Source: Anaeromyxobacter sp. Fw109-5 | GTDB lineage: Bacteria; Myxococcota; Myxococcia; Myxococcales; Anaeromyxobacteraceae | Assembly (NCBI RefSeq): GCF_000017505.1 | Contig: NC_009675.1 | Span: 5,150,501 to 5,214,500, forward strand | Direction of reading: 5' to 3' | Length of the DNA: 64,000 nt | In this document: piece after piece, positions 1,217 to 38,831 of the stretch | Layout of the letters: each line of letters begins with the position of its first letter | Position numbering within the stretch: position 1 is the stretch's first letter | Translations under genes and position numbers: made by a program | The notes under the pieces: model-generated | Seen by the model: only the letters and a program-made list of their open reading frames with translations | What the model was told of the DNA's origin: nothing | Databases searched by the model: none

Positions 1217-1246
1217 TTGACGCGTGCAGGGCGGCGTGCCTAGCAT
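1217..1246 (+). promoter_or_regulatory. Sigma70-type promoter for the cysteine leader
   Basis: A TTGACG box (1217-1222) and a TAGCAT box (1241-1246) are separated by 18 bases. The start of transcription would fall near 1253, almost on the ATG at 1255, so the leader ORF may be translated from a leaderless or nearly leaderless mRNA. The boxes are seen directly; their activity is inferred. Confidence 0.5.
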
Positions 1247-1254
1247 CGGCGTCG

Positions 1255-1344
1255 ATGTCACGACCCGACAGCTCGCAGACCCTCGGCGCGGCGGAGTACG
1301 CGCCCTGCATGTGTCGCCTGCCGGGCGCGTTCGCCCGCGGCTAG
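1255..1344 (+). CDS. Putative cysteine-sensing leader peptide (29 aa)
   Basis: A 29-codon ORF starts with ATG at 1255 and stops with TAG at 1342-1344. Near its 3' end it encodes the run PCMCRLPGAF, with Cys codons at 1306-1308 and 1312-1314. It sits between a good promoter and an ATP-sulfurylase-like gene and is followed by competing hairpins, which is the layout of an amino-acid attenuator. The inferred role is to stall ribosomes at the Cys codons when cysteine is scarce and so control the downstream sulfur gene. It is too short to judge by codon statistics, so its translation is not proven. Confidence 0.55.
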   Translation: MSRPDSSQTLGAAEYAPCMCRLPGAFARG

Positions 1345-1391
1345 CTGCGCCCGGCCACGCGGGGAGGCTCTCCTCTCCGCTGCTCCTCCCC
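1321..1391 (+). promoter_or_regulatory. Candidate attenuator hairpins after the leader ORF
   Basis: Three stems can be drawn. CCGGGCGC (1321-1328) pairs with GCGCCCGG (1347-1354), enclosing the leader stop codon. This excludes the smaller stem GGGCG (1323-1327) with CGCCC (1332-1336). Further on, GGGGAGG (1361-1367) pairs with CCTCCCC (1385-1391). A ribosome stalled on the Cys codons would cover the left arm of the first two stems. No U-run follows the last stem, so if it terminates, it is not a textbook intrinsic terminator. Which structure is on or off is inference. Confidence 0.4.
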
Positions 1392-1471
1392 CGAAACCCT
1401 ACGACCCGGCGGACGGCCTGCGCCGTCCCGGTGCCGTGCCGCGGCGGCGCTCTCAGCATTGGAGCTGCGCG

Positions 1472-2368
1472 ATGACCCGCCTTCCCGAACCTCATGCAGG
1501 TGTGCTGGTCGATCTTCACGTCCACGCCGATCGCGCCGCGGAGCTGCGCGATCGAGCCGCTCGCCTCCCGCGGATCTCGCTGGACGCGCGCGAAGCCGCG
1601 GACCTCGACCTCCTCGCCTCCGGCGCCGCGAGCCCGCTGTCCGGGTTCATGGGGGTGCACGACTACCGGAGCGTCCTCGACCGGCTTCGGCTGGCGAACG
1701 GCACGCCGTGGCCCATCCCGGTCACGCTCGCCGTGACCATCGAGCAGATGGCGGGGGCCCTGCGCCACGGGGCTGCGGCGCTGGGGGATGCGCGCGGCCG
1801 GCTGCGCGCCGTGCTCGACGTCACGGACGCGTTCGTGCGCGATCCGCGCGAGGAGGCGCGCGCGCTGTACGGCACGGACGATCCCGACCACGTGGGCGTC
1901 GCGAAGCTGCTGTCGCGGCCCACCGGGACCCTCGGCGGAAGGATCACCGCCCTCCGCCCGAGCGCGCCGCTCGGAGGCGCCGCGCTCGGGCCGCGCGACG
2001 TGCGGTCGCTCGCACGCCGGGAGCGGTGGACGGCGATCGCCGCGCTGGCGACCGTGGACGGGGCGTCGTGCCTCGAACCGAGCGGCGGCGCGGCTCCGGC
2101 GCTGCTGCCCATCCTCCCCGTGGCCGTCCGGCACGCGGCCGGGCGCGACGCGTTCCTGCTGGCGATCGTGCTGAAGAACTACGGCGCGCGGGAGGTCCTG
2201 TTCGAGCACGACCGAGCGGACTGGCTCGAGGTCTCTCCGGAGCTCTTGCCCCAGGATCTCGGGATCACTCCGACCTGGGTGCGCTGCCCTGCTCCTCGAG
2301 CGGTGCAGCACCGGCGCACGACGGCGTCGCGGCGGGACTCGGCGGAGCCCCATCCTCCCGAGGCGTGA
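1472..2368 (+). CDS. ATP-sulfurylase-like protein, shortened and lacking catalytic motifs
   Basis: The first 90 or so residues match sulfate adenylyltransferase (N-terminal PUA-like domain): 'RLPRISLDAREAADLDLLASG' style start, then 'SPLSGFMG..DY.SVL', 'RLANGTPWPIPVTL', and later 'DPDHVGVAKL' and 'GGRITAL'. The catalytic part is poor. The usual Q-T-R-N-P and H-x-x-H signatures are absent, and only a 'LKNYGAREVLFEHDRADW' stretch recalls the KNYG / GRDHAG region. The protein is 298 residues, versus about 390 in active enzymes. The start at 1472 is supported by GGAG at 1461-1464; an upstream ATG at 1436 is in frame but lacks support. It may be a non-catalytic paralogue, a sulfate/APS-binding regulator or a decaying gene. 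Confidence 0.6.
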   Translation: MTRLPEPHAGVLVDLHVHADRAAELRDRAARLPRISLDAREAADLDLLASGAASPLSGFMGVHDYRSVLDRLRLANGTPWPIPVTLAVTIEQMAGALRHGAAALGDARGRLRAVLDVTDAFVRDPREEARALYGTDDPDHVGVAKLLSRPTGTLGGRITALRPSAPLGGAALGPRDVRSLARRERWTAIAALATVDGASCLEPSGGAAPALLPILPVAVRHAAGRDAFLLAIVLKNYGAREVLFEHDRADWLEVSPELLPQDLGITPTWVRCPAPRAVQHRRTTASRRDSAEPHPPEA

Positions 2369-3169: not shown

Positions 3170-3485
3170 GGATCCTCCTTCATCGCTGACGACGATGACG
3201 TCGTGGTCGAGTGGCGGTCGAGGTCGAGGTCGAGGTCGGGGTCGGGGTCGAGGTCGGGGTCGAGGTCGGGGTCGAGGTCGGGGTCGAGGTCGGGGTCGGG
3301 GTCGGGGTCGAGGGCGAGGTCGGGGTCGAGGTCGGGGTCGGGGTCGGGGTCGTAGTCGCCGTCGCGGTCGCCCGTCCGCGTGCCGCTGCCCTCGTTTGAC
3401 GCCGCCCCGCCCGGCCGGTTATGCGCGTGCCCGACATGGACCCGACGACAGGCTGTCAGCGCGCCGCCGCCGGAGGCCAGGGCAC
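3170..3485. promoter_or_regulatory. Divergent intergenic region filled by hexamer repeats
   Basis: This 316-base gap separates the SDR gene (minus) and the MFS gene (plus), so promoters for both must lie here. About half of it is the hexanucleotide tract listed separately. I could not pick a convincing -35/-10 pair. The ribosome-binding site GGAGG at 3472-3476 belongs to the MFS gene. Confidence 0.5.
3217..3372. repeat. Hexanucleotide tandem repeat GTCGRG, about 26 units
   Basis: The unit GTCGAG/GTCGGG is repeated without break from 3217, degenerating to GTCGCC at 3372. G-runs of four are spaced by TC (for example 3322-3348), giving plus-strand G-quadruplex potential. All six frames stay open through it, which creates spurious Val-Glu-Val-Gly and Thr-Pro-Thr-Ser ORFs. 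Such tracts change length by slippage, and here they would change spacing in a shared promoter region. Confidence 0.9.
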
Positions 3486-9034: not shown

Positions 9035-9064
9035 TTGACCGGACGATCCGCCGTTATCTAGGAT
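9035..9064 (+). promoter_or_regulatory. Promoter of the sulfate-binding protein gene
   Basis: TTGACC (9035-9040) and TAGGAT (9059-9064) are separated by 18 bases, a good sigma70-type match. Transcription would start near 9071, inside the palindrome at 9066-9079. Confidence 0.5.
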
Positions 9065-9065
9065 G

Positions 9066-9079
9066 TCCGTTATAACGGA
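9066..9079. promoter_or_regulatory. Perfect 14-bp palindrome TCCGTTATAACGGA, putative sulfur operator
   Basis: The sequence TCCGTTATAACGGA is a perfect inverted repeat placed directly downstream of the -10 box and over the predicted start site, as expected for a repressor operator. A near copy (13 of 14 positions) lies before the sulfite/nitrite reductase gene at 38818-38831. An extra half-site-like CCGTTAT is at 9051-9057. The binding protein is unknown; an Rrf2-type (CymR-like) regulator is one possibility. Confidence 0.6.
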
Positions 9080-38817: not shown

Positions 38818-38831
38818 TCCGTCATAACGGA
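38818..38831. promoter_or_regulatory. 14-bp palindrome, second putative sulfur operator
   Basis: TCCGTCATAACGGA matches the perfect palindrome at 9066-9079 at 13 of 14 positions, and flanking G and C extend the symmetry to 16 bases. It lies about 43 bases upstream of the reductase start codon. A clear -35/-10 pair was not found. Confidence 0.6.

What the first reader, a model, noticed from the sequence alone, without database searches (positions are those of the whole stretch)
1217..1472. Cysteine-sensing leader peptide and attenuator before an ATP-sulfurylase-like gene
A 29-codon ORF with codons Cys-Met-Cys follows a good promoter. Alternative hairpins lie after the Cys codons: 1321-1328 with 1347-1354 excludes 1323-1327 with 1332-1336, and a third stem is at 1361-1391. 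This is the logic of amino-acid attenuation applied to sulfur assimilation. The predicted transcript starts at or next to the ATG, so the leader may be translated from a leaderless mRNA. I know no described example with this CMCRLP signature, though I cannot search.
Basis: partly seen in the sequence, partly recalled or inferred. Interest (0 to 1): 0.72.

Follow-up and report, generated by a model that had tools for sequence, protein, structure and literature searches.

The report
Cysteine-sensing leader peptide in a myxobacterium
A 29-codon start-at-the-first-base reading frame with Cys-Met-Cys codons lies before a degenerate sulfur gene, and it turns out to belong to a previously uncatalogued family of such cysteine leader peptides that precede sulfur-metabolism genes across this bacterial family; the regulation itself is still untested.

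Summary
The 29-codon ORF (1255-1344), its promoter and the hairpin after the Cys codons are real features. At its own locus nothing is conserved: eight congeneric genomes lack the downstream gene. However, a family-wide scan for promoters with an ATG at the expected transcript start found the same design elsewhere. Ten leaders (window included) in nine genomes of this bacterial family are leaderless ORFs of 29-34 codons with C-x-C-R-[R/P/Q/L]-P (CCRRP once). Most end ...CxCRRPAPPARMRG, and a hairpin encloses the stop codon. They precede a UPF0324 transporter, siroheme synthase, PAPS reductase or OsmC genes. No Rfam, NCBIfam or literature entry was found. The window ORF is a divergent member. 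A covariance model built without it ranks 1306-1360 first in the 64 kb, but only narrowly. A C-rich, G-poor tract follows the stop, so Rho-dependent or translational attenuation is likelier. The downstream protein has lost the ATP-sulfurylase catalytic motif. Cysteine leader attenuators are known (mycobacteria; Streptomyces 'metL', with the same CMCR), so this is a new variant of a known kind. Responsiveness to cysteine is inferred, not shown.

The parts
1217..1246 (+). sigma-70-like promoter TTGACG-18-TAGCAT; lacks the sulfur operator seen at the related leaders
1255..1344 (+). leaderless 29-codon leader ORF MSRPDSSQTLGAAEYAPCMCRLPGAFARG
1306..1314 (+). Cys-Met-Cys codons TGC ATG TGT, followed by Arg-Leu-Pro (family motif C-x-C-R-x-P)
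1320..1355 (+). hairpin 1, encloses the stop codon 1342-1344
1359..1380 (+). hairpin 2 (competes with 1361-1367/1385-1391)
1368..1407 (+). C-rich, G-poor tract (23 C, 4 G), a possible Rho loading site
   Evidence: 0.3% of background segments reach this
1460..1465 (+). ribosome-binding site TGGAGC of the downstream gene
1472..2368 (+). degenerate ATP-sulfurylase: PUA-like N-terminal domain kept, catalytic QTRNPxHRAHE stretch missing

Best explanation
A cysteine-responsive leader (attenuator) of a lineage-specific family. Transcription starts next to the ATG and a ribosome initiates on the leaderless mRNA. With enough Cys-tRNA it passes Cys-Met-Cys, reaches the stop codon inside hairpin 1 and leaves; the C-rich RNA behind it is then bare and expression of the downstream gene is cut, by Rho or through its start site. 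When Cys-tRNA is short the ribosome stalls at the Cys codons on the 5' arm of hairpin 1, the downstream fold changes, and the gene is expressed. Shown by sequence: promoter, ORF, motif, hairpin, C-rich tract, recurrence before sulfur genes. Inferred: translation, stalling, the output step and its direction.
For: Scan of 24 whole genomes for TTGAC-N16-20-TANNAT-N4-10-ATG, blind to cysteine: of the 11 leaderless ORFs of 20-60 codons (ten distinct sites plus the window ORF), 7 carry CxC or CC, all 7 continue CR, and all have a sulfur or thiol gene, or a sulfur-gene relic, downstream. Three more orthologous leaders. The C.?CR.P motif occurs in only about 0.1% of other short ATG ORFs in the held DNA. 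Same spacing of -10 to ATG, and a hairpin enclosing the stop in members folded. A model built without the window puts 1306-1360 first in 64 kb, Cys codons in register, 21.2 bits; it gives the equally divergent PAPS-reductase leader 23.9 bits. Codon bias. C-rich tract. Precedents: PMC4633059, PMC9031893, PMC8079986.
Against: The model score is only just ahead of the next window site (21.2 vs 19.9 bits). The window promoter lacks the sulfur operator that the other leaders have. No orthologue of this leader exists. Two relatives of the downstream gene have no Cys leader. The downstream gene is degenerate. Folding with ribosome masks shows no consistent switch at the start site. The family alignment has no compensatory changes.
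Confidence: 0.62

Rival explanations
1. A relic: once a working member of the leader family, now decaying together with a dying ATP-sulfurylase gene.
For: Downstream protein lost the catalytic stretch; operator absent; leader diverged from the family consensus; in the same genome another leader sits before a transporter gene reduced to an N-terminal remnant.
Against: Codon bias, CxCR motif, spacing and hairpin are intact. Degenerate ATP-sulfurylases with open frames also occur in two other genomes, one beside the sulfur operator with a hexapeptide transferase, so the protein may have a use.
Confidence: 0.2
2. A chance ORF in GC-rich intergenic DNA; no leader function.
For: Locus absent from congeners; 1.8% of shuffles give a CxC or CC ORF; the whole leader fold is ordinary.
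Against: Joint occurrence of leaderless spacing, CxCR.P motif (about 0.1% of short ORFs), stop-enclosing hairpin and sulfur-type gene, matching an independently found family.
Confidence: 0.12
3. The conserved unit is the RNA hairpin (for example a protein-binding or Rho-related element), and the Cys codons are incidental.
For: In the family the nucleotides of both hairpin arms are almost invariant, more than a peptide alone would need.
Against: CxC (or CC) lies just outside the hairpin and persists in all ten members while the ORF's N-terminal half is unconserved; the ATG stays at the transcript start.
Confidence: 0.06

Closest known systems
Leaderless polycysteine short-ORF attenuators of mycobacteria (Shell 2015, PMC4633059; Canestrari 2020, cited in PMC9031893)
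   Same: Leaderless short ORF with clustered Cys codons near its end, upstream of sulfur/cysteine genes, no conserved terminator hairpin
   Different: Other phylum; CxC rather than a run of Cys; a hairpin encloses the stop codon and the C-terminus is conserved; not tested for cysteine response
Streptomyces lividans metL leader before metNIQ (PMC8079986)
   Same: 29 codons, leaderless, CMCR motif, hairpins without a U-run downstream
   Different: Third Cys, methionine-uptake operon, assigned to methionine/threonine by its authors; relation to this family not shown
uORFC-8-2 motif before cysS in Rhodobacterales (PMC8632094)
   Same: Short upstream ORF with two Cys codons and two stems
   Different: Tandem Cys, intrinsic terminator with U-run, cysteinyl-tRNA synthetase gene
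Candidate cys leader peptides of Actinobacteria (Seliverstov 2005, PMC1262725)
   Same: Cys-codon leader, no terminator, Rho proposed
   Different: Runs of Cys codons next to the stop; no conserved hairpins
Classical trp/his attenuator
   Same: Ribosome position at diagnostic codons is the presumed sensor
   Different: No terminator/antiterminator pair here

Membership tests
Classical transcription attenuator | Leader ORF with codons of the regulated amino acid | tested here: met
Classical transcription attenuator | Intrinsic terminator with U-run | tested here: not met
Classical transcription attenuator | Mutually exclusive antiterminator and terminator | tested here: not met
   hairpins coexist
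Mycobacterial-type leaderless cysteine attenuator | ATG at the transcript start | tested here: inconclusive
   promoter position only; no RNA data
Mycobacterial-type leaderless cysteine attenuator | Contiguous Cys codons near the ORF end | tested here: not met
   Cys-Met-Cys, not contiguous
Mycobacterial-type leaderless cysteine attenuator | Cysteine-dependent expression | not testable with these tools
   needs a reporter or Ribo-seq
CxCR leaderless leader family (defined here) | Leaderless ATG 8-10 nt after the -10 (TAGGAT type) | tested here: met
   8 nt
CxCR leaderless leader family (defined here) | C-x-C-R-x-P near the C-terminus (CCRRP in one member) | tested here: met
   CMCRLP
CxCR leaderless leader family (defined here) | Hairpin enclosing the stop codon | tested here: met
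   1320-1355
CxCR leaderless leader family (defined here) | Significant match to a model of the other members | tested here: inconclusive
   best in 64 kb, but 21.2 vs 19.9 bits
CxCR leaderless leader family (defined here) | Sulfur operator TCCGTTATnnCGGA-like in the promoter | tested here: not met
   so it is described as a divergent, not a typical, member
uORFC-8-2 / any Rfam family | Rfam gathering score | tested here: not met
ATP sulfurylase (downstream gene) | QTRNPxHRAHE active-site motif | tested here: not met
   Pfam ATP-sulfurylase below cut-off

The most novel reading that the evidence does not exclude
A cysteine attenuator class of Myxococcota in which a leaderless ORF ends inside its own regulatory hairpin (CxCRRPAPPARMRG plus stem), works with Rho rather than a U-run terminator, and acts on top of a transcription-factor operator shared by the sulfur regulon; in the window it has been captured by a catalytically dead ATP-sulfurylase, perhaps a regulator.
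Probability: 0.35. Interest if true: 0.75.

Novelty: new variant of a known kind. Interest (0 to 1): 0.58.

Why it matters
Cysteine-responsive leaderless attenuators have been shown in mycobacteria; a family with a conserved peptide end and a hairpin around the stop in another phylum would suggest that leaderless leaders are a wider strategy, and offers sites where it can be tested in culturable strains. It also provides a motif that finds unannotated sulfur-regulated genes.

Tried and rejected
DNA search of the leader in relatives: no orthologue, only short GC-rich matches. Leader peptide against 189 genomes: only itself below E 0.05. Genome-contig scan with the downstream protein: 3 distant loci, the one with a complete gene encoding a full-length enzyme. 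Upstream regions of the cysD operon (three relatives, this genome): no Cys leader, but a conserved operator. Pattern with the full operator promoter found nothing (probably too strict). DNA-level homology of the window leader to the family by local alignment: suggestive only, best with one member. Start-site accessibility with ribosome masks: no consistent switch. Covariation: none, the family is too conserved. Pattern TGYNNNTGYCGNCNGCCGG across the phylum gave mostly chance hits outside the genus, of which only some were inspected. Searches failed on coordinates.

Full report
What is in the sequence. The promoter TTGACG-18-TAGCAT (1217-1246), the 29-codon ORF 1255-1344 and the strong stem after the Cys codons are all present. 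The ATG lies 8 nt behind the -10 hexamer, so the transcript would start at or beside it. A short ATG ORF with CxC or CC appears in 1.8% of dinucleotide shuffles, and the codon use of this one beats 98.6% of shuffled ORFs. Alone this is suggestive, given how many intergenic regions a genome has.

The hairpin logic. Hairpin 1 (1320-1355) encloses the stop codon 1342-1344. No U-run terminator exists, and the complete leader is no more structured than shuffles (z -0.46). The proposed three-way switch is therefore not supported. A C-rich, G-poor tract (1368-1407; 23 C, 4 G) follows, which only 0.3% of background segments match. Seven of ten leaders are at or below about 5% in that test, but they are related sequences, so Rho is a candidate, not a demonstrated step.

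The downstream gene. 1472-2368 encodes the PUA-like domain of ATP sulfurylase (Pfam E 2.1e-42), but the catalytic stretch QTRNPxHRAHE is missing. The genome has no match to the Pfam ATP-sulfurylase family; two adjacent PAPS-reductase-family genes, read here as cysD and cysH, lie elsewhere. The gene is absent from eight congeneric genomes; in G004 the DUF2332 gene and the SDR gene are neighbours with no such gene between. Two other genomes of the family (G018, G021) have similarly degenerate proteins; in G018 the gene diverges from a hexapeptide-transferase gene across a palindrome.

The family of leaders. An exact search for the TGCATGTGYCG codons in 24 genomes turned up, in a congeneric genome, a 33-codon ORF MRALPASSRSAARRTLHRRCMCRRPAPPARMRG directly behind a promoter and before a UPF0324 (PF03601) gene. 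A second search that knew nothing of cysteine, promoter plus ATG at the expected transcript start, was then read out. About 70 sites were seen; a few listed sites similar to others already read were not fetched. Many start long genes, so leaderless messages seem common here. Among the 11 leaderless ORFs of 20-60 codons, counting the window's, 7 have CxC or CC, and each continues with Arg: G007, G003 and G006 before UPF0324; this genome's second site (CCRRPAPAARMRG) before a remnant of that gene and then siroheme synthase; G023 before OsmC; G009 before PAPS reductase; and the window. Three more orthologous UPF0324 leaders (G001, G002, G005) use a slightly different -10. Gene identities. Among other short ATG ORFs in held DNA the motif C.?CR.P is seen in about 0.1% (part of that DNA was fetched for related motifs, so the rate is if anything too high).

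Is the window ORF a member? It shares spacing, C-x-C-R-x-P, length and the stop-enclosing hairpin. A covariance model from eight others, without the window, ranks 1306-1360 first of all 64 kb with the Cys codons in register (21.2 bits, E 0.011), but the next site scores 19.9, so this is weak by itself. The PAPS-reductase leader, also not used for the model, scores 23.9. The window leader lacks the sulfur operator present in the promoters of the others. I call it a divergent member, about 0.75 likely, and put the cysteine mechanism at about 0.62.

How it may work. In the members folded, the 5' arm of the hairpin begins within reach of a ribosome stalled at the Cys codons and the stop codon lies inside the hairpin. 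A ribosome with enough Cys-tRNA therefore runs into and then leaves the hairpin region, whereas a starved one sits on its 5' arm. What follows downstream is open: start-site accessibility computed with ribosome masks gives no consistent switch. The family is so conserved that no compensatory base changes exist, so the structure rests on conservation and energy only.

Known systems. Leaderless polycysteine ORFs regulate by attenuation in mycobacteria (PMC4633059; Canestrari 2020 as reported in PMC9031893). Actinobacterial cys leaders without terminators were predicted in 2005, with Rho suggested (PMC1262725). A Rhodobacterales cysS leader has a terminator (PMC8632094). Streptomyces lividans metL is a 29-codon leaderless leader with the same CMCR (PMC8079986). 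The peptide end found here is in no NCBIfam model, no Rfam family and no paper of the library.

Noticed in passing
window 9050-9079; L092:7173-7204, L093:6795-6826, L094:6026-6061, L091:5903-5935: Conserved palindrome TCCGTTATnnCGGA, doubled around the -10, before the cysD operon in four genomes and before a solute-binding-protein gene (9116) in the window; looks like the operator of a sulfur regulator. Regulator not identified.
   Followed up: partly
window 38818-38831: A single copy of the same palindrome (TCCGTTATGACGGA on the minus strand).
   Followed up: no
L159 (this genome, 4218156-4220400): 190-480: Leader with CCRRPAPAARMRG followed by a short remnant of the UPF0324 gene (MSSAPLSPLPRRRRA...), then siroheme synthase: the transporter gene seems deleted here but its leader kept.
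   Followed up: partly
L010/L097 (G018) and L003/L098 (G021): ATP-sulfurylase-like proteins of about 310 aa lacking the active-site motif, in two other genomes; in G018 a full-length enzyme is also present on the same contig. Possible pseudoenzyme family.
   Followed up: partly
L228 (G009): about 1488-1540, minus strand: CGCRRPAP codons and hairpin near the sulfate-assimilation cluster without a clear promoter; possible further leader or remnant (21.0 bits to the model).
   Followed up: no
L126, L130, L131, L137, L149 and others: An 88-89 aa protein (M.LI..PE.A.RLARAICSD.SLYN...) starts leaderless in many genomes of the family: an apparently conserved leaderless gene.
   Followed up: no
window about 3210-3360: Long run of GTCGAG/GTCGGG simple repeats between the SDR gene and the MFS gene.
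   Followed up: no
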